From positions 1-11,039 of the forward strand of contig JAKPKF010000279.1 of the NCBI GenBank assembly GCA_029553845.1: 11,039 bases of DNA, given 5' to 3'. The notes beneath the pieces are model-generated. The model had not been told where the DNA came from. It was given only the letters and a program-made list of their open reading frames with translations, and made no database searches. Within the stretch, counting starts at the first letter, position 1. Every line of letters begins with the position of its first letter. Shown in pieces: positions 1 to 11,039 of the stretch. Both the position numbers and the translations under genes were made by a program. This stretch comes from a bacterium. GTDB lineage: Bacteria > Patescibacteria > Dojkabacteria > SC72.

Positions 1-2639
1 AAAGTCTTCTCAGCAGGCGTTAATACTTTATCATATGTATAGTCAGCCATCTTAGCTGCAAAGGCTTCAGCCGGACTTCTAACAGCATTAAACCTATCAG
101 TTGTATCTATCTTAATAGCCTCTGGGTTAATCTTACCTTCAGCATCATAGAACTTGTTCATAAAATGCTGTCTATAAATAGCCCTATCAGCACTGGTTAG
201 AACATTATAGAAAGCCCAATGTGATACTTCATGGGCAAGAGACTTAGGGTTCTTAATAGTCACAAGGTTATCTACAAAACTATAAAATCCACCAACTTCC
301 TTAAGCTTTGGATCTATCTTAAGCTCAAATGTAGGCTGCTTCTTAAGCGTATCAAGAATAGTATTAGCAATCTTAGCATGTCCAGGTTTTCCTTTATAAT
401 GACTAGCAATAGCCTTTCTAGAAAAGGCCATACGCTTATCTCTAATCTTACTATCTGCAATAGCTTCAACTTTCTCAATAGTCTTGAACCATTCAACTGC
501 TTCAGCCTTTGTAAGTGGCATATGTTGATAAACTCTAGAAAGCAAATACCTAGCCCTATCTTCACTAATACTATCTAACCTATTTCTTGCATTATATAAC
601 TCTTTCTCTACATCAACTTTAGCTTTAACAGAATCAGCATGAATCTCTTTATTCCACTTATCTGAACTGAGGAACTCGACATAGTCCTTAATAACTTTCT
701 CTCTTGCAAAGTTAAGCTCTGCAGGCATACCCTCTGCTTCAAGCCTAGCTTCCCAATCCTCAGCTTCCGCCTTACTCTCCCTATCAGCTTTAATCTCCTG
801 AGCCCTAGTCTTAACAGGCTTACCAATATCGGTAATAGGACTAAGATCTTCACCTGGAATATGCTCAGCATCTATCTCCTCAACAGCTTCCTTAAGTGGA
901 ACTCGACGCCTATATAAACCTTTCTTCTGCTTCCCAGTCTTCTCATAATAAGCATCAAGTCTTTGCCTTACAAGATCCCTACGACTCATATAATCTTCGA
1001 GTGTAAGTATAGGCTCTCCTTCTTCATTCACTTCAAGAAACTTTCTAAGCCTCTCAGTAGGTTCCAGGAGTTCACCAAAAGGGAGTTCATTACCAACTTT
1101 CTCTGCCAGCGCTACCATCTTAGCTTCAAGCTCAGGTGTTATCTTATCAGGAGTAACACCTTCCATCTCCTTACGAAGCGCAGCAAGCTCCTGCTCAATC
1201 TCTCCCATAGCACTAACTTGCTTTTTACTTGGATTAAGCTTATTTGTACTACCAAGTGTATTATATCTAGCCTTGGCAGCTGCCTCAACTTTACTCGCAA
1301 GCTCTCTTGCCTTCTCTATCTCAGCAGAAGTCTGCTTAACTTCAGGCACTATATTAAACGTCCTATTATATTGCTCTCTCTGCTTAAATCCAGGAAGCTT
1401 CTTTATCCTCTCAAGCTCCTCAACAGCAAAGACATTTGTATCTTCAAGTGCCTTAAACTCTTCTGCTGTCAACGCCCCTTTGTTCAATTTTTGAACAGAG
1501 GGTGCCTCAGGCTTTGCTTCAGAAACGATATTAGCGCCTTCACCAAATAAGGCCTGTGCCTGCTCTCTTGCATACGTATCAACTAGACTATCTGTCTTAT
1601 ATAGTTCCCTTACCTTAGCAACATCTCCTATCTCCTTAACCTTATCTAAGACAAATAATTTAGTATCAGCATCAAGCTCCTTAACAGCAACTTCAGCAGG
1701 ATCTTCTATCTTAACCTTAGAACCCTCTTCCTGCTCTTTCTTAATCATATCTTGAAACTTAACAAGGTCCTCTTGCTTCTTATTAAGATCATCGACAAGC
1801 TGTCTACGCCTACGCTTTGCAACAGTATTAGCTCCACTCACAGCAGTTGTAGCTCCAAGCAGATCTGGCTTTAAAGAAGGTTGTATAATACCTCCAGTTG
1901 TAGCAGTATCTGGAATACCAGCCTTCTCTGCATTAGCCTGTCTCAAAGCAAACCTTTCTGCTCTAGGTCCTGCTTCTATAGCCTTCTTAGCCATCTGAGC
2001 TCCACCTGTGCCAGCTTTAAGAGCTCCAAGTGTAAGTCCAGTAATAGCAAGACCTTCTGGTGTAACGTCTCTACCTTCAAGTCCAGCCCCTACAGCTTCA
2101 CCTCCACCAACTTGAAGTGGGAAAGCAGTTTTCTGCAACACTTTACTAATTCCTGGAAGCTTAGCAATAGGACCTAAGGCTCCCATAGTCCCACCAATAG
2201 CACCTCCAAGCCCAGCATGCTTGGCGATTGTACTAGGTGAATCTCCTCGCATATAAGCTTTAAAAGCTTCAGTACCTGCCATAGCAGTGGCTGGAATAAC
2301 AGTAGCTGAACCTCCCCAAGTTGCTGGTAAAGCAAGTGTAGCAGGAAGTGCACTAACAGCAAACGCAGGTATATCACCAGCAAGTGTAGCACCACTTCCT
2401 ATAAGCTCCTGCATAAATCCCTTTGGCTGATATTTAGGCTGGGTATATCCTTCCTCTCCACTAAGTGCTCTACCTACAAGACCAGTAGCAGATTCACCAA
2501 ATCCTTGCTTAATAATATCCCAAGTAGAAGGCTCCTTAGGCTTAGCAACACTTTGTATACTAGGAGTATCTTCAATAGGTGTAGCTTTATATACTGGAGT
2601 CTCCTCTATTGGAGTAGCCTGATATATAGTTTCACTCAT
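1..2639 (-). CDS. Large virion protein with zinc-metallopeptidase motif (3' end outside window)
   Basis: An open frame of 879 residues from ATG at 2639 to the left edge with no stop. Its ribosome binding site GTGAGG contains the stop of the preceding gene. Order: an 11-residue tandem repeat (residues 5-26); a Gly/Ala-rich hydrophobic region (about 75-210) with glycine-zipper sequence such as GLGGAIGGTMGALG; a basic patch KRRRRQ (275-280); then a long Lys/Glu-rich helical, partly coiled-coil region (280-780). Near the edge, SLAHEVSHWAFYNVL carries HExxH (H803, E804, H807), and SPAEAFAAKMADY follows with a candidate third zinc ligand, E858. This is the pattern of a zincin-like metallopeptidase. 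Placed last after internal-protein genes, it fits a large virion protein injected with the DNA, with a protease acting on the host envelope, host proteins or its own particle. Phage polyvalent proteins can carry similar zincin domains. The family of the N-terminal part is unknown to me, and further domains may follow beyond the edge. Confidence 0.6.
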   Translation of the reverse strand, partial: MSETIYQATPIEETPVYKATPIEDTPSIQSVAKPKEPSTWDIIKQGFGESATGLVGRALSGEEGYTQPKYQPKGFMQELIGSGATLAGDIPAFAVSALPATLALPATWGGSATVIPATAMAGTEAFKAYMRGDSPSTIAKHAGLGGAIGGTMGALGPIAKLPGISKVLQKTAFPLQVGGGEAVGAGLEGRDVTPEGLAITGLTLGALKAGTGGAQMAKKAIEAGPRAERFALRQANAEKAGIPDTATTGGIIQPSLKPDLLGATTAVSGANTVAKRRRRQLVDDLNKKQEDLVKFQDMIKKEQEEGSKVKIEDPAEVAVKELDADTKLFVLDKVKEIGDVAKVRELYKTDSLVDTYAREQAQALFGEGANIVSEAKPEAPSVQKLNKGALTAEEFKALEDTNVFAVEELERIKKLPGFKQREQYNRTFNIVPEVKQTSAEIEKARELASKVEAAAKARYNTLGSTNKLNPSKKQVSAMGEIEQELAALRKEMEGVTPDKITPELEAKMVALAEKVGNELPFGELLEPTERLRKFLEVNEEGEPILTLEDYMSRRDLVRQRLDAYYEKTGKQKKGLYRRRVPLKEAVEEIDAEHIPGEDLSPITDIGKPVKTRAQEIKADRESKAEAEDWEARLEAEGMPAELNFAREKVIKDYVEFLSSDKWNKEIHADSVKAKVDVEKELYNARNRLDSISEDRARYLLSRVYQHMPLTKAEAVEWFKTIEKVEAIADSKIRDKRMAFSRKAIASHYKGKPGHAKIANTILDTLKKQPTFELKIDPKLKEVGGFYSFVDNLVTIKNPKSLAHEVSHWAFYNVLTSADRAIYRQHFMNKFYDAEGKINPEAIKIDTTDRFNAVRSPAEAFAAKMADYTYDKVLTPAEKT
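219..233 (-). other. HEVSH zinc-binding/catalytic motif
   Basis: Codons for residues 803-807 of the large virion protein read H-E-V-S-H inside a predicted helix (SLAHEVSHWAFYNVL). The two His would bind zinc and the Glu would act as general base. A Glu 51 residues further on, in SPAEAFAAK (codon 66-68), is the likely third ligand. The motif is seen; activity is inferred. Confidence 0.65.
1475..1502 (-). repeat. 28-base dyad repeat, copy B (inside coding sequence)
   Basis: Second copy of the dyad found in the capsid-adaptor gap, with the same orientation and the same core TGTTCAA-N3-TTGAACA (1481-1497), outer CCCT/AGGG arms and internal mismatch. It lies inside the large peptidase-bearing virion protein gene, where it encodes part of PSVQKLNKGAL, in a charged helical region. 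Copy A is non-coding, so the resemblance cannot come from a shared protein motif. It must be kept, or have spread, at the nucleotide level. Confidence 0.75.
2562..2627 (-). repeat. Tandem 11-residue repeat at the N-terminus of the large virion protein
   Basis: Two adjacent 33-base units encode IYQATPIEETP and VYKATPIEDTP. They differ at 9 of 33 bases, and five of these are silent third-position changes, so the peptide rather than the DNA appears to be kept. It may be a docking peptide or linker to another virion protein. Confidence 0.6.
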
Positions 2640-7406: not shown

Positions 7407-8682
7407 AATTTCCCCTTACACTTGTCTTATCAGTTAACTTCCACTCAACTGTTATATTGTTAATCTCTACACTCTCAACTGGACTAGACATAATACATAT
7501 CTTAAAGTCTGTTCCACTAACGATTGGCGTAGAAACTCCATTAGGTGAACACCTTACCCAACCTGTAGACCTAAACGCTTCAGACCTACTATTCCGCCAC
7601 TTAATCATAATACCACTATTACTTCCAATACTTCCACCTATCTCAACTTGCTGAATAGTCTTTATAGCAGACAAATTAAAGTCAACAACATCAGTTTCTA
7701 TATAAACATACTCACTTCCCATAATCTTACTAGCACCACCAAAGAAGTTACTGGTGCAGGAATCTATAAACAACTCCTGTGCTATAAGCGAAGTCCTTAG
7801 ATTAATAACAGATGTTATTGCAACCCCTATCTCAGTGAGTCCACTTCCAGTATATACAAAGGATCTAAGTCCATTGCTTATATAGAACTCATCTTCATCT
7901 TGATTATAAGTTACTACTATAAGTCCCTTTCCAGTAGTAATACTAAAATCCTCTTGCATAGGCTTAAAAATATGCCTATAACCAAGAGCAGTAGAAACAT
8001 AACCCTGTCCATACTGACCCATGCTTATCTCTCTAAGCTCACCTTCCCTATCTACATAAAGCTGCTTATTCCTTCCATCTCCAGCAGCTGCAAGTGGATT
8101 CATAATACCTATATTACTAAGCAAAGTGTCAAAGCTATAAGTAGGAGCAGGTGAAGCAACTGGAGATAAAAGGCTTACAGACATAGTAGTATAAGTAACA
8201 ACTGAATTCTTCAAAGGAAGTAAAGCCATAACAGTTTCATCAGAGCTAGTTCCCATATAAGCAAACCCAGCCTCATTCTTCTTCGTATTAGCTGTAGCCC
8301 CAAGGAACCTAAAAGCTCCAATCTCAGACCATCTTACTATACGACTATCTGATGGAAATGTAGCTTCAGTAGTATTATAACTTCCACCAAGTAGAACTTG
8401 TCCTTTGAAGAGACAACCACACATAGGAGGCCCCCAACTAGCTAGCCACTGAGTTGCAACGTAAGTAGCTGAAGTTCCCTCAGCAGTAAGCATAGCCTCA
8501 GTTATTGTAATATTACTAGGGGATATATAACCTTCCACATAGGAAAAAGAAATAACATCAGCAAGTGTTGCTCTTGTAGTTGTAAACTCAGAATCAAACC
8601 AAGGTGTCTTTCCAACTACACACCACTTAGCCCCTATGTCATTAACATTGCTAGGTATTATAGTAACAGTAAAGTCTCCCAT
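7384..8682 (-). CDS. Putative tail nozzle / beta-propeller protein, C-terminal component
   Basis: 432 residues from an ATG that shares its A with the stop of the preceding gene (TAATG). A G-rich stretch (GGTGGTGAG) lies just upstream, so reinitiation or weak direct initiation is likely. The protein is almost entirely beta-strand in character: repeated blade-like units such as GCLFKGQVLLGG, RIVRWSEIGAFRFLG (about 112-126), AGFAYMGTSSDETVMALLPL, SVVTYTTMSVSLLSP, KQLYVDREGELREISMGQYG and EFYISNGLRSFVYTG. The WSEIG motif and the regular spacing are reminiscent of propeller-like tail tube/nozzle proteins of short-tailed phages. The C-terminal part (about 330-432) is a separate beta domain, with VEIGGSIGSNSGIMIKWRNS and paired VEINNITVEW strands. 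The 3' end overlaps the next gene by 23 bases. It could instead be a receptor-facing tail protein. Confidence 0.5.
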   Translation of the reverse strand: MGDFTVTIIPSNVNDIGAKWCVVGKTPWFDSEFTTTRATLADVISFSYVEGYISPSNITITEAMLTAEGTSATYVATQWLASWGPPMCGCLFKGQVLLGGSYNTTEATFPSDSRIVRWSEIGAFRFLGATANTKKNEAGFAYMGTSSDETVMALLPLKNSVVTYTTMSVSLLSPVASPAPTYSFDTLLSNIGIMNPLAAAGDGRNKQLYVDREGELREISMGQYGQGYVSTALGYRHIFKPMQEDFSITTGKGLIVVTYNQDEDEFYISNGLRSFVYTGSGLTEIGVAITSVINLRTSLIAQELFIDSCTSNFFGGASKIMGSEYVYIETDVVDFNLSAIKTIQQVEIGGSIGSNSGIMIKWRNSRSEAFRSTGWVRCSPNGVSTPIVSGTDFKICIMSSPVESVEINNITVEWKLTDKTSVRGNYASGSAA

Positions 8683-9149
8683 TAGCTCACCACCAAATAA
8701 GATTCTGCGTTTGAATCATAGTATACAAACTTACTTCCACTTGTAAAAGCTGGATAACCCATAATAGGAATACAAACCCAAGGCCATATAGTTGCACCAG
8801 TACTATAACTCATTAAATAAATGTCAGGAGTCCCAGCAACAACTGGATCTGTAACCTTATAAAGCCCTTCAACAGCTCCAATAAAAACTCCAGCATCTGT
8901 TAAGAAAACCTGTGGAAAAGGCCATCTCCTTGTTATAGTAACTGCATCACTTGTCAAATAGTCATAAAAGCTACGAGAAGGATCTAACACATCATTGATA
9001 TCTGGTATATATCCCTTAAGACCTTGAGGTAGTACTTTAGCATTCCTACAATCTACAAATAAGCCATTGTTCCTAGTAGTAATCTCACCAGGCCTAAGGC
9101 CTCCACCCTTCTCAAAACCCTTACTAATAACAGTCCTAAAGGCCTTCAT
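8682..9149 (-). CDS. Putative tail nozzle / tubular protein, N-terminal component
   Basis: 155 residues from ATG at 9149. A TTG four codons earlier overlaps the previous gene, but GGAGG lies five bases before the ATG, which decides the start. The N-terminus has a basic and Gly-rich segment (GFEKGGGLRPGEITTRNNG, residues about 9-28) and then LFVDCRNAKVLPQGLKGY. The rest is beta-rich with many aromatic residues (FYDYL, ITRRWPFPQVFLTDAGVFIG, GLYKV, FVYYDSNAESYLVV), in keeping with beta-propeller blades as in podovirus nozzles (T7 gp12 or P22 gp10 role). No transmembrane segment. Its TAA overlaps the ATG of the next gene as TAATG, so the two are translationally coupled. The short length and the beta-rich sequence continuing in the next gene suggest one nozzle split in two. 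I do not recognise a precise family; the role is inferred from position and composition. Confidence 0.45.
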   Translation of the reverse strand: MKAFRTVISKGFEKGGGLRPGEITTRNNGLFVDCRNAKVLPQGLKGYIPDINDVLDPSRSFYDYLTSDAVTITRRWPFPQVFLTDAGVFIGAVEGLYKVTDPVVAGTPDIYLMSYSTGATIWPWVCIPIMGYPAFTSGSKFVYYDSNAESYLVVS

Positions 9150-9150
9150 A

Positions 9151-9906
9151 CTAGCCTCCAATCTGGTTTATATTATAAGATTCTTGATCAGCAAAGTCTT
9201 TATCAAGACCATCTACATCAACTTTAAGAGCACTCATCCAATCATTAGCACCTTCAGTATTTCTATAGAACGTCTCAAGCTCATAAAGAGCAGCCTTAAG
9301 AAGTATCTGAGGATGAACTTCAGTCCACATACTCTTGGTCTGCGTCCAAGTTCCAGATGAAACTGTTGCACTAAGTGTTGGACTATAGAATGTGCCATAG
9401 ACGCTGATATAGTAAGTGGTATCTGGAGGAGGCATAATTACTATGCCACTATACTTATAGTGATCAGGAACTGTAGCATGAAGCTGAAGATCATCTATAT
9501 CGTAATATCCTGATAGGCTTGTAGTAGTACTACTATCGGGAAAAGGTCTAAGAATTGCAGGAGCATAATAGTATGGAGTTCCCTGATCTATATCTCCAAG
9601 CTGCTCTTCATACTCTTCCCTAAGCCAATCAAGATCAACTCGAAGCAATTCTACAAGCCCATCTGTAGAGTTTCCAGCCCATGCCTTATGAACTGCCCTA
9701 AGTCCTTCTACATAAACTTTAATAGTCCCTGCAGCTACTGACTTAACATACTTAGCCTTCATCATGCCAGTGTTCTGCATTCTATCCAGGTGAGCCTGCC
9801 CAGCGTTTATATAGAAATCAGCTCCATTATCAGTAAGATCAGCATTTATAAGATCATACCTACCTGATAGTTCACAGAACTTCTTCCTAAGTAAATAGTA
9901 ATCCAC
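9151..9906 (-). CDS. Probable head-to-tail adaptor/connector protein
   Basis: 251 residues starting at GTG, with ribosome binding site AAAGGGGG five bases upstream; no closer ATG fits as well. The first gene after capsid in a podovirus-like operon is commonly the adaptor that sits under the portal and receives the tail nozzle (T7 gp11-like or P22 gp4-like role), and that is the main reason for the call. The N-terminal region, with YDLINADLTDNGADFYINAG followed by an Asp/Arg-rich helix (residues about 18-45), matches the pattern I recall for conserved proteins encoded next to this type of capsid gene. The middle (about 95-195) is acidic and beta-rich with PDHYKYSGIVIMPPPDTTYY. The C-terminal part (205-245) is helical. 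No membrane segment or signal peptide. Its ribosome binding site can be masked by the upstream dyad. Its final codons carry the GGAGG used by the next gene, whose ATG comes one base after this gene's TAG. A tail completion protein is the alternative. Confidence 0.55.
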   Translation of the reverse strand: MDYYLLRKKFCELSGRYDLINADLTDNGADFYINAGQAHLDRMQNTGMMKAKYVKSVAAGTIKVYVEGLRAVHKAWAGNSTDGLVELLRVDLDWLREEYEEQLGDIDQGTPYYYAPAILRPFPDSSTTTSLSGYYDIDDLQLHATVPDHYKYSGIVIMPPPDTTYYISVYGTFYSPTLSATVSSGTWTQTKSMWTEVHPQILLKAALYELETFYRNTEGANDWMSALKVDVDGLDKDFADQESYNINQIGG

Positions 9907-9912
9907 TTTAAC

Positions 9913-9940
9913 CCCCTTTGTTCAATATTTGAACATAGGG
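9913..9940 (-). repeat. 28-base dyad repeat, copy A (covers adaptor ribosome binding site)
   Basis: Imperfect inverted repeat with a perfect 17-base core TGTTCAA-N3-TTGAACA (9919-9935), extended by CCCT/AGGG outer arms with one mismatch in between. It matches copy B at 1475-1502 at 26 of 28 positions; the two differences are at the loop centre and at the already unpaired position, so pairing is kept. As RNA, its 3' arm contains most of the G-rich ribosome binding site (AAAGGGGG) of the adaptor gene that starts at 9906. Its 5' arm CCCTATG (9934-9940) is also the 3' arm of the 14-bp hairpin, so the two folds exclude each other. As DNA it could instead be a protein-binding operator. Confidence 0.75.
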
Positions 9941-9971
9941 CAGGGAGTTGTAAGAACCTCCCCACCCTATG
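9934..9971 (-). promoter_or_regulatory. 14-bp RNA hairpin downstream of the capsid gene
   Basis: Two 14-base arms (9934-9947 and 9958-9971) flank a 10-base loop. On the minus-strand transcript all 14 positions pair, with two G-U wobbles; read on the plus strand those two positions would be C/A mismatches. This indicates an RNA structure of the operon transcript. It starts 27 bases after the capsid stop codon. No U-tract follows, so it is not a canonical intrinsic terminator. It could protect the 3' end of the capsid message, pause the polymerase, act as a processing site, or be one state of a switch with the overlapping dyad. The structure is seen; the role is inference. Confidence 0.7.
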
Positions 9972-9998
9972 TCGCCGCTTACCTGGAGGAGAACACGG

Positions 9999-11039
9999 CT
10001 ACGCAGTATGGTTCAAACCAACACCATTCAAGAACGCTGCAGTGTAAGGATGATGATATTCAAGACCTGCTTCAGTCAAGAACTCTTCCTGTGTCCCATC
10101 AATCCTACCACCATTAGTGCCAGCTGCTGCAGTACCCTTCTCAGACTCACCGTAGAAGTTCGTATCATCAATATAGCGATAGACACAATTCTCAGGCTCA
10201 AACAACAGCATTGAGTTACGAAGCGTAGACTCAATGTTGAACAAAGGATGCGTTTTCAAGTAGATCTTCCCAAAGGGAGTGACCCACTCAGTAACATTTA
10301 TGCCATAGGCCTTAGTTACACTGGTCATCGTGAAGTGAGAACCAGCCTGTGCAAGACGATTGATGCCAAGAAGAGCACCAGTTCCACACACTGCCAGTTT
10401 TTCCTGCCTTCCATATCTGAAGACCCGCTCTAAATACTCATTCAGGAACTCATCTCCACCTCCATCATCTAACCAGTTTTTACCATGGTAGGTAGCATCC
10501 AGCTGGAAGTCAGCAACATTACCACTGTTGTTAGTGCGTAGACAAGTGATAAGCCCTTCAGTTGTCCGCTCAGGCTTACCATTATCTCCAGTGCCTTCAT
10601 AAGGAATACCAAATAAGAAGGCCTTCTCCATCTCAATACCGTGGAGTTCAAGCGCTTCCCTCTTGGCTTCTTTATACTGGTCACCAGTGCGAAGCTTCGT
10701 CTTTCTTGCCGTCCTTGTAATAGACAGCGGCGTACGGAAGATCTGCGTATAGTTATACAGCTTATCAGGATCATAAGCAAGAGCAGAAGGCATCGCAGCA
10801 CCTTCAGCATTCACGTTACCAATGACCATAACCTTATCACAATCACTTAGATCATGGCCATACGCGCTGTTATCATCAGCTTCCAACAGCTTAACACCAA
10901 TACTGGAAGAAGATCCATTACTGGTACGAGCAGTAACCTTACCAACAACATCAACTGTAAAGTCAGAAGCATCACGCATAACAACAGTATGACCAACTCT
11001 GAAGTGAATAATATCAGATGCTGACATCTTCAAATACAA
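9999..11039 (-). CDS. Major capsid protein (DUF5309/SU10-type), 5' end outside window
   Basis: Probable major head protein that forms the icosahedral shell. The visible 346 residues start at the window edge; the frame is open there, so the N-terminus (probably about 80-110 residues) lies beyond it. The edge TTG and the nearby ATG (residue 5) are unlikely to be real starts, because the first visible residues look like the internal beta-rich part of the family. Recognised by the stretch around residues 95-145, containing YNYTQIFRTPLSITRTARKT and then a helix with REALELHGIEMEKAFLFG, which is typical of this HK97-fold-like group. The C-terminal part (about 250-346) is the acidic and aromatic region that ends EYHHPYTAAFLNGVGL. 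Codon use differs from the rest of the operon: of 16 Ile codons I count 11 ATT, 4 ATC and 1 ATA, and Arg is often CGN. This fits a very highly expressed gene. It ends with TAG and is followed by a structured gap before the adaptor gene. The family call is from recall of the motif, not from a search. Confidence 0.85.
   Translation of the reverse strand: MYLKMSASDIIHFRVGHTVVMRDASDFTVDVVGKVTARTSNGSSSSIGVKLLEADDNSAYGHDLSDCDKVMVIGNVNAEGAAMPSALAYDPDKLYNYTQIFRTPLSITRTARKTKLRTGDQYKEAKREALELHGIEMEKAFLFGIPYEGTGDNGKPERTTEGLITCLRTNNSGNVADFQLDATYHGKNWLDDGGGDEFLNEYLERVFRYGRQEKLAVCGTGALLGINRLAQAGSHFTMTSVTKAYGINVTEWVTPFGKIYLKTHPLFNIESTLRNSMLLFEPENCVYRYIDDTNFYGESEKGTAAAGTNGGRIDGTQEEFLTEAGLEYHHPYTAAFLNGVGLNHTA

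What the first reader, a model, noticed from the sequence alone, without database searches (positions are those of the whole stretch)
9913..9940. A 28-base dyad occurs twice, once between genes and once inside a gene 8.4 kb away
Positions 9913-9940 and 1475-1502 agree at 26 of 28 bases in the same orientation, with a perfect 17-base core TGTTCAA-N3-TTGAACA and CCCT/AGGG outer arms. The two differences fall at the loop centre and at a position already unpaired, so both copies keep the same fold. One copy is non-coding and the other encodes part of a virion protein, so protein conservation cannot explain it. Possible roles: operator for a phage regulator, binding site for a packaging or partition factor, an RNA control element, or a small mobile hairpin.
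Basis: partly seen in the sequence, partly recalled or inferred. Interest (0 to 1): 0.75.

Follow-up and report, generated by a model that had tools for sequence, protein, structure and literature searches.

The report
Phage-wide address sites for ParB-methylase
The repeated palindrome is one of many copies spread through the genomes of a group of uncultured phages, and it changes in step with the DNA-reading helix of a phage enzyme that joins a partition-type DNA clamp to a DNA methyltransferase, so it is very probably that enzyme's landing site rather than a hairpin or a chance repeat.

Summary
The dyad is a 23-bp palindrome, CTNTGTTCAA-N3-TTGAACANAG, present 9 times in the nearest virus record (42.8 kb). 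Most of the 17 related records examined have their own family (2-20 copies; 22 in a later one), with a similar outer frame (CTNTG...CANAG) but a different core: TGTCCAA, TGTCAAT, TGGTAAA, TGGAACA, TGATGAT.... Sites mostly lie between a stop codon and the next ribosome-binding site, and usually one lies inside the giant virion gene (15 of 19). Spacing is more even than chance in 15 of 19 records. Mismatch patterns fit DNA, not RNA. Best binder: a ParB_N-HTH-N6/N4-methyltransferase fusion. In 32 phages, recognition-helix residue 146 is His in 8/8 with TGG half-sites (1/24 others) and residue 151 is Arg in 5/5 with C at position 6 (0/27 others); new loci: 5/5 for the first rule. There are exceptions. 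Residue 146 matches, by eye, ParB R173/Noc Q173, a proven specificity residue. That the sites load a sliding methyltransferase is inferred. Such fusions are known; eight literature searches found no description of their sites.

The parts
9916..9938 (.). 23-bp palindromic site (CTTTGTTCAATATTTGAACATAG) between the MCP gene and the next gene
   Evidence: Sequence; same frame in relatives and a site at the same place in 13 of 21
1478..1500 (.). 23-bp palindromic site (CTTTGTTCAATTTTTGAACAGAG) inside the giant virion gene
   Evidence: Sequence; site inside a gene of over 1100 codons in 15 of 19 related phages
9912..9919 (-). Ribosome-binding-site-like AAAGGGGG that merges with the right flank of the site
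   Evidence: Read; the same SITE-AAGG...ATG arrangement is common in relatives
9151..9906 (-). 251-codon gene directly downstream of the site (post-MCP gene, GTG start)
   Evidence: ORF list; family member in 17 of 17 records compared
9999..11039 (-). Major capsid protein gene upstream of the site (runs off the window)
   Evidence: PHROG 1328 major head protein, E 1.6e-28
9932..9973 (-). Strong RNA hairpin at the MCP 3' end that shares one arm of the site and outcompetes it in RNA
   Evidence: -28.2 kcal/mol, z -3.5; hairpins of other sequence seen by eye at the same spot in G001 and G015
3..2639 (-). Giant virion gene (879 codons of it in the window) that contains the second site
   Evidence: ORF list; no Pfam or PHROG match at the thresholds used

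Best explanation
The palindromes are dispersed parS-like landing sites for a phage-encoded ParB_N-HTH-DNA methyltransferase. STRONGLY SUPPORTED by covariation: a dimer of the ParB-type HTH reads the two half-sites, and phage lineages have their own matching site/protein pairs. INFERRED: as in ParB, Noc and KorB, the nucleotide-binding ParB_N domains close around DNA at the site and the clamp slides away; the fused N6/N4 methyltransferase is thereby loaded onto the phage's own genome and methylates it, most plausibly to mark it as self against host restriction. INFERRED: multiple sites, on average one every 2 to 5 kb in most of the longer records and usually with one inside the longest gene, keep much of the genome within reach (G002, with 5 sites in 46.7 kb, is sparser). 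Confidence that the ParB-HTH domain is the binder: about 0.85. Confidence in the sliding-methyltransferase step: about 0.45.
For: (1) Covariation: in 32 phages with the CT-frame site, recognition-helix residue 146 (G001 numbering) is His in 8/8 with half-site TGG and 1/24 others; residue 151 is Arg in 5/5 with C at position 6 (two of the five proteins nearly identical) and 0/27 others. On a tree built without the HTH columns these traits change 6 and 7 times, and 4 and 4 times; in independent pairs on well-supported branches they go together in 3/3 and 2/2. (2) New loci: G at position 3 means His146 in 5/5 and no His means no G in 12/12; of two further His loci one has one TGG half per site and one has none. 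(3) Anchored by eye on GKS, residue 146 corresponds to Caulobacter ParB R173/Noc Q173 (R reads G1, Q reads A1) and 151 to N178, a parS contact (PMC7383237 passages); our two Gln146 phages (TGATACA, TGATGAT) have A there. (4) Model pLDDT 89.9 with a helix starting at 146; Foldseek finds N4/N6 methyltransferases, Noc (1e-9) and ParB (1.6e-8), the last two at low TM-score. (5) TIGR00180 above cutoff in both fusion proteins scanned; GGRR and ENxxR conserved. (6) G009 (46 kb) has neither a fusion hit nor sites; G020 has a hit to the methyltransferase part only and no sites. (7) Largest gap smaller than for random gene-start slots (p<0.05) in 15 of 19 records. (8) DNA-type symmetry. (9) A site lies within 400 bp upstream of the small-gene/ParB-methyltransferase operon in 9 of 13, against 156 of 701 gene starts.
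Against: No binding, NTPase, sliding or methylation was measured. The fusion gene lies outside the window; it is inferred from the nearest record (MCP 97% identical). Exceptions to the rules: His146 without TGG in G003 (TGTCCAA), L240, half of each L232 site, and L212 (a non-CT-frame locus left out of the 32); and two non-CT-frame families with GG at the matching places, G018 and L179, have Lys146. The Arg rule had no case among the new loci. Pair sign tests are not significant alone (p 0.25 and 0.5), and the five new His/TGG loci are 51-65% identical to rows already used. Eight of the 32 families, two of the eight TGG ones among them, did not exceed shuffles in the stricter test; that test was passed by 31 of 50 fusion loci, and G012 (50 kb) failed it. 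The fusion occurs without a clear site family in Microcystis phage Mel-JY34, Vibrio ABTNL-3 (4 copies against 3 in shuffles; its ParB_N is under the Pfam cutoff) and L153 (20.6 kb). Sites without the fusion in the piece held: G005, G010, G019 (22-26 kb) and several shorter contigs. Spacing is not unusually even in G002, G005, G022 and G033. Sites hug ribosome-binding sites and the ParB operon, which also fits a transcriptional role.
Confidence: 0.6

Rival explanations
1. Same binder, other job: the ParB-methyltransferase sits on or slides from these sites to repress or road-block phage transcription (KorB- or stoperator-like), with methylation secondary.
For: Sites often lie between stop codons and ribosome-binding sites, in operons of both orientations; a site lies upstream of the ParB operon in 9 of 13; KorB is a CTP clamp that reaches promoters up to 1.5 kb away (PMC11790492, abstract start and passages).
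Against: Sites are evenly spread in 15 of 19 records rather than tied to certain genes; places before TerL (3/21), portal (7/21) and scaffold (7/21) are mostly not kept; usually one site lies inside a gene. No promoter analysis was done.
Confidence: 0.25
2. The sites serve condensation, partition or packaging of phage DNA through the ParB domain.
For: ParB homology and even spacing.
Against: No ParA seen among 20 of about 56 G001 ORFs scanned; the C-terminal half is a methyltransferase, not a ParB dimer domain; sites are not clustered at one place.
Confidence: 0.1
3. A different phage DNA-binding protein reads the sites: the fast-evolving 157-aa ribbon-helix-helix-like protein (G001 1941-2414) or the 82-aa one beside the ParB gene.
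For: Both are widespread in the group (17 and 14 members found; one more of each in G041).
Against: Their predicted DNA-contact strands do not follow the site: for the 157-aa type, G005 (TGGTAAA) and G029 (TGTTCAA) share VNVQGR, and G009 has it but no sites; for the 82-aa type, G001, G002 and G003 have almost the same strand (RLSII, RLSIE, RLSID) and three different sites. Strand assignment is by eye.
Confidence: 0.08
4. RNA hairpin: the dyad works in the transcript (processing, stability or translation control) or as a single-strand hairpin promoter.
For: 7-bp stem and 3-nt loop beside the ribosome-binding site; folds alone at -13 to -16 kcal/mol.
Against: The W position pairs in only 43 of 132 oriented sites; in gene sense A.C mismatches (67) outnumber G.U (45), the reverse of RNA selection (which includes some false frames); beside the MCP gene a different hairpin wins; no Rfam match at gathering score in the window.
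Confidence: 0.03
5. Small mobile or recombinogenic hairpin that spreads between gene borders.
For: Many near-identical copies per genome, often at gene borders.
Against: The core differs between close relatives (G001, G002, G003) and covaries with one protein; no flanking duplications noticed in the listed contexts, but no systematic empty-site comparison was made.
Confidence: 0.02

Closest known systems
ParB/Noc and their parS/NBS sites
   Same: ParB_N nucleotide-binding domain, HTH reading a palindrome, specificity residue at the start of the recognition helix (Arg/Gln there; His/Gln here)
   Different: Fused to a methyltransferase, no ParB dimer domain and no ParA seen in the ORFs scanned; sites are 17-18 bp in a 23-24-bp frame, spread through the genome, and change core between close relatives
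KorB of plasmid RK2 (PMC11790492, abstract start and passages)
   Same: ParB-family CTP clamp that acts from operator sites at a distance; matched by sequence search (8qa8, E 5e-7)
   Different: KorB is a co-repressor with KorA; here no KorA has been identified and an enzyme domain is attached
17-bp dyad repeats of Cluster O mycobacteriophages, TGTTCGG-N3-CCGAACA, 34 in Corndog (PMC4351075)
   Same: 7-3-7 palindrome repeated through a phage genome, many intergenic and about a third in genes; the phages encode a ParB-like protein
   Different: ParB-like gp94 of Firecracker has no methyltransferase match; its authors left the repeats unexplained and called ParB involvement in genome stability unlikely; protein/site covariation was not reported in the parts read
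Phage ParB-CTPase fold fused to N6_N4 methyltransferase (survey PMC12704722)
   Same: Same two domains, noted as more frequent in phages, function unknown
   Different: No such binding sites in the passages read, and 'palindrom' does not occur in the main text; here sites and a recognition rule are proposed
SAS/ESAS of Cluster K mycobacteriophages (PMC3203893, passages)
   Same: Repeats next to translation starts, with inverted repeats whose consensus differs by subcluster
   Different: [quoted passage not shown] ESAS are imperfect 17-bp inverted repeats with a variable spacer
Stoperators of Cluster A mycobacteriophages
   Same: Many sites per genome bound by a phage protein (recalled; contrasted in PMC4351075)
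   Different: Asymmetric and oriented with transcription (PMC4351075 discussion); these are symmetric

Membership tests
ParB family (binder) | ParB_N domain with GxRR and ENxxR nucleotide motifs | tested here: met
   PF02195 E 3.5e-15; TIGR00180 65.6 bits over 58.45; G57-R60 and E93-N94-R97 conserved in 17 sequences
ParB family (binder) | HTH domain after ParB_N that reads the site | tested here: met
   Helices 135-142 and 146-161 in a model with pLDDT 89.9; residues 146 and 151 covary with the site (146 also). Direct binding not tested
ParB family (binder) | C-terminal dimerisation domain | tested here: not met
   C-terminal half matches N6/N4 methyltransferases
ParB family (binder) | ParA partner in the operon | tested here: inconclusive
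   None among 20 of about 56 G001 ORFs scanned with Pfam
ParB family (binder) | NTP-dependent clamp closing and sliding | not testable with these tools
   Needs purified protein
parS sites | 16-bp palindrome TGTTTCACGTGAAACA (recalled) | tested here: not met
   17-18 bp with lineage-specific cores; may work like parS, not the same sequence
Cluster O-type dispersed dyads | 7-3-7 palindrome many times per genome plus a ParB-like gene | tested here: met
   Firecracker compared (25 kb of its 71 kb)
Stoperators | Asymmetric sites oriented with transcription | tested here: not met
   Symmetric sites
RNA hairpin element / Rfam family | Pairing kept by compensatory change; Rfam match | tested here: not met
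N4 virion RNA polymerase hairpin promoters (recalled) | Single-strand hairpin recognised by a virion RNA polymerase | tested here: inconclusive
   No Pfam match in three giant virion proteins, but RNA polymerase was not searched for specifically; a fixed core per genome and free W pairing speak against it

The most novel reading that the evidence does not exclude
These phages carry an address system: spaced, lineage-specific palindromes load a ParB clamp that carries a DNA methyltransferase, so that methylation is steered to the phage's own genome by landing sites rather than only by the enzyme's short target. Close relatives have private site/enzyme pairs, which would make self-marking phage-specific even against co-infecting relatives. 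Cluster O mycobacteriophage repeats may be the same principle with another cargo.
Probability: 0.4. Interest if true: 0.92.

Novelty: new variant of a known kind. Interest (0 to 1): 0.8.

Why it matters
A recent survey lists phage ParB-methyltransferase fusions as frequent and of unknown function (PMC12704722). This work gives them candidate DNA sites and a testable recognition rule for the CT-frame sites (His146 with G at half-site position 3, Gln146 with A, Arg151 with C at position 6). It suggests an explanation for dispersed dyads reported without explanation in other phages in 2015 (PMC4351075), and it predicts a new way to direct methylation to one genome. Natural site/protein pairs from many phages provide a ready matrix for testing ParB-type DNA recognition.

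Tried and rejected
RNA hairpin reading: rejected on W-position pairing, the A.C against G.U count, the competing hairpin and Rfam. Ribbon-helix-helix-like proteins as binders: rejected because their contact strands do not follow the site. TerS-like HTH protein: aligned, not pursued; it is also in G009 and G020, which lack sites. Mobile hairpin: no sign of insertion noticed, not searched systematically. N4-type promoter: considered from memory, not supported. A first exact scan of viral contigs with wider CCCT/AGGG arms found nothing; the CT/AG frame found 32 stretches in 21 contigs. A distant-mode DNA search of window 8000-11039 in named phages found nothing. The search for repeated 16-mers in 7 records gave clear dyad families in G001, G010 and G011 only. 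Literature searches. What was read: passages, outline and abstract of PMC12704722; passages and the Discussion of PMC4351075; passages only of PMC3203893, PMC7383237, PMC11790492 and PMC10370329; PMC9296519 was seen in a search listing only.

Limits of the counts: the 32-phage table was put together by hand, in part after I had seen the helices; several of its families rest on 2 or 3 sites. Rows aligned but left out of the 32 because their sites are not in the CT frame or were unclear: G018, L153, L159, L174, L176, L179, L182, L194, L198, L201, L209, L212; L187, L188 and L190 had mixed frames and were not aligned. Site lists for the spacing and operon tests were typed in from earlier outputs; one search took the 11 records that I judged richest in sites, adds 8 others. 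Related phages are not independent, so p-values are guides. One search uses a relaxed frame and includes some false sites.

Full report
WHAT WAS CHECKED. No other place in the window comes within 3 mismatches of the core. The genes run on the minus strand: MCP (9999-11039), a gap with the first site, the 251-codon post-MCP gene (9151-9906), seven more genes, and an open giant gene (3-2639) that holds the second site.

MORE COPIES. The window's own assembly is not held. The nearest record, G001 (IMGVR_UViG_3300000032_000059, 42.8 kb; MCP 97% identical), has 7 perfect and 2 one-mismatch copies of the core; a tenth hit had 3 mismatches, and the reversed control pattern scored 3 at that threshold. 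Among 20 other records of MCP relatives, 6 matched the same core within 2 mismatches, three of them with 15, 19 and 20 copies.

MOST PHAGES EXAMINED HAVE THEIR OWN FAMILY. A scan for repeated near-palindromes in 17 records, without assuming the sequence, found families above the shuffles in most: TGTTCAA-N3 (G001), TGTCAAT-N3 (G002), TGTCCAA-N3 (G003), TGTTYAA-N3 (G014, G015, G017), TGTTCAA-N4 (G006, G007), TGGTAAA-N3 (G005), TGGAACA-N3 (G016), AGGTCA-N5 (G018); weak in G010, G012 and G019; none clear in G009 or G020. G011 turned out to have about 17 copies of a looser TGTTRAT type. The outer frame CTNTG...CANAG with a palindromic inside gave 2 to 20 sites in 13 of 17 records, and none in the single letter-shuffle made of each of these 13. 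A named relative, Desulfofustis phage LS06-2018-MD01 (OP947158, MCP 47%), has 9 copies of a TGTCCCA type; its host was inferred by its authors from CRISPR (passages of PMC10370329). A phage contig binned in a Clostridia MAG has 22 exact copies of CTWTGATGAT-N3-ATCATCAWAG, and all matches in that 1.9-Mb bin lie on this contig. Four more distant named phages (Mel-JY34, Kuura, ABTNL-3, PaP2) showed no clear family.

THE SITE MARKS ONE PHAGE GROUP. A scan of the viral contig collection (2.9 million contigs by the tool's description) for CTNTGTTCAA-N3-TTGAACANAG returned 32 stretches in 21 contigs, 5 of the stretches from G001 itself. 29 of the 32 stretches encode proteins of this group. Of the other three contigs, one (L090) encodes a ParB-methyltransferase relative elsewhere on the same contig (L201); the other two (L097, L099) have a single copy each.

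DNA, NOT RNA. In 132 sites oriented by neighbouring genes the W position next to TG pairs in 43, while the outer C and T pair in all by construction; inside the stems A.C mismatches (67) outnumber G.U (45) in the transcript sense. At the window's MCP gap the transcript prefers another hairpin, -28.2 kcal/mol, that uses up one arm of the dyad. The in-gene copy in G003 follows that phage's own core and changes an amino acid to do so (sequence; translation by eye).

WHERE THE SITES LIE. Many sit between a stop codon and the next ribosome-binding site, with the right flank running into AAGG. Upstream of the post-MCP gene: 13 of 21; inside a gene of over 1100 codons: 15 of 19 (G010 and G018 include weak extra hits); upstream of TerL 3 of 21, portal 7 of 21, scaffold 7 of 21. 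The largest gap between sites is smaller than for random gene-start slots at p<0.05 in 11 of 11 site-rich records and in 4 of 8 others (not in G002, G005, G022, G033); against uniform placement in 5 of 11 and 2 of 8. These records are related and not independent.

THE BINDER. Three candidates were compared. Two ribbon-helix-helix-like proteins do not follow the site. The third is a fusion of ParB_N, a ParB-type HTH and an N6/N4 methyltransferase (G001 36617-37960). Its family is found in 13 of the 17 first records, one of them (G020) with the methyltransferase part only; it is missing in G009 and in the 22-26-kb pieces G005, G010 and G019. A profile search of viral contigs returned its best 80 loci, many with site families of their own, though only 31 of 50 fusion loci or genomes tested exceeded 10 shuffles. 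In 32 phages with the CT frame, half-site position 3 is best tied, by shared information among the six columns printed, to residue 146 (0.93 bits; column 52 had a higher z-score with 0.47 bits), and position 6 to residue 151: His146 in 8 of 8 TGG types and 1 of 24 others; Arg151 in 5 of 5 with C at position 6 and 0 of 27 others. On a tree made without the HTH columns the site traits change 6 and 4 times; on well-supported branches 3 of 3 and 2 of 2 independent pairs go together (sign tests p 0.25 and 0.5). Six and four pairs exist on the whole tree; because the traits agree in every row but G003, at least 5 of the 6 and all 4 must go together (deduced, not printed). A second search with another alignment gave new loci; of 60 with the protein, 19 had an automatically called family of 3 or more sites: 5 of 5 with G at position 3 have His146, 12 of 12 without His lack G, and 2 with His are L232, whose sites each have one TGG and one TGT half, and L240, which has TGT (Fisher p 0.0018). 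The five are 51-65% identical to the nearest row used before. Position 6 could not be tested there. Outside the CT frame the rule does not carry over simply: G018 and L179 (GGTCA-like sites) have Lys146 and L212 has His without TGG.

FIT WITH KNOWN ParB. The motif G-K/V-S-x146....x151 corresponds, by eye, to Caulobacter ParB G170-K171-S172-R173....N178. R173 contacts G1 of parS, Noc has Gln there and reads A1, and N178 contacts parS (passages of PMC7383237). The model places residue 146 at the start of the second HTH helix. PDB matches by sequence include Noc, ParB, KorB and N4/N6 methyltransferases; by fold, in the 50 rows printed, methyltransferases, Noc and ParB, the last two with low TM-scores.

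FUNCTION. Shown here: covariation, spread and mostly even spacing of sites, and the fusion to a methyltransferase. Not shown: binding, clamp formation, sliding, methylation. The spacing and the in-gene sites fit a job done on the whole genome better than control of chosen operons, which is why clamp-loaded methylation is put first; the excess of sites upstream of the ParB operon (9 of 13 against 156 of 701 gene starts) keeps a regulatory role alive.

NOVELTY. The fusion is known and listed as frequent in phages, function unknown (PMC12704722, passages). Cluster O mycobacteriophages have the same kind of dispersed dyad and a ParB-like protein, unexplained (PMC4351075, passages and Discussion); Firecracker's version has no methyltransferase match. 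Searches for a paper joining dispersed palindromes and such a fusion showed none in the listings of the open-licence library.

Noticed in passing
window 9932-9973: A strong MCP 3'-end hairpin directly abuts the site; G001 and G015 show hairpins of different sequence at the same spot (by eye), perhaps a 3' end or processing signal of capsid mRNA.
   Followed up: partly
L040:6404-8476 (G001): A 690-aa protein with an Mtd second domain (Pfam), like a diversity-generating retroelement target; no retroelement parts were searched for.
   Followed up: no
L040:17163-17855 and L041:13711-14157 (G001): A LAGLIDADG endonuclease gene upstream of MCP and an HNH endonuclease gene beside the UDG-DNA polymerase A gene.
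   Followed up: no
L041:14150-16696 (G001): Uracil-DNA glycosylase domain fused in front of a family A DNA polymerase.
   Followed up: no
L230 (Firecracker), 25 kb: 23 copies of TGTTCGG-N3-CCGAACA within one mismatch in 25 kb, with a ParB-like gene without a methyltransferase match; may be the same principle with another cargo.
   Followed up: partly
window 3-2639: Giant virion protein with an HEVSHWAF (HExxH-like) motif but no Pfam or PHROG match.
   Followed up: no
L041:18153-18401 (G001) and orthologs: An 82-aa ribbon-helix-helix-like protein is encoded just before the ParB-methyltransferase in many members; it could be a partner, as KorA is for KorB.
   Followed up: partly
G018 and L179: Non-CT-frame site families with GGTCA-like half-sites go with Lys at residue 146, perhaps a second branch of the recognition rule.
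   Followed up: no
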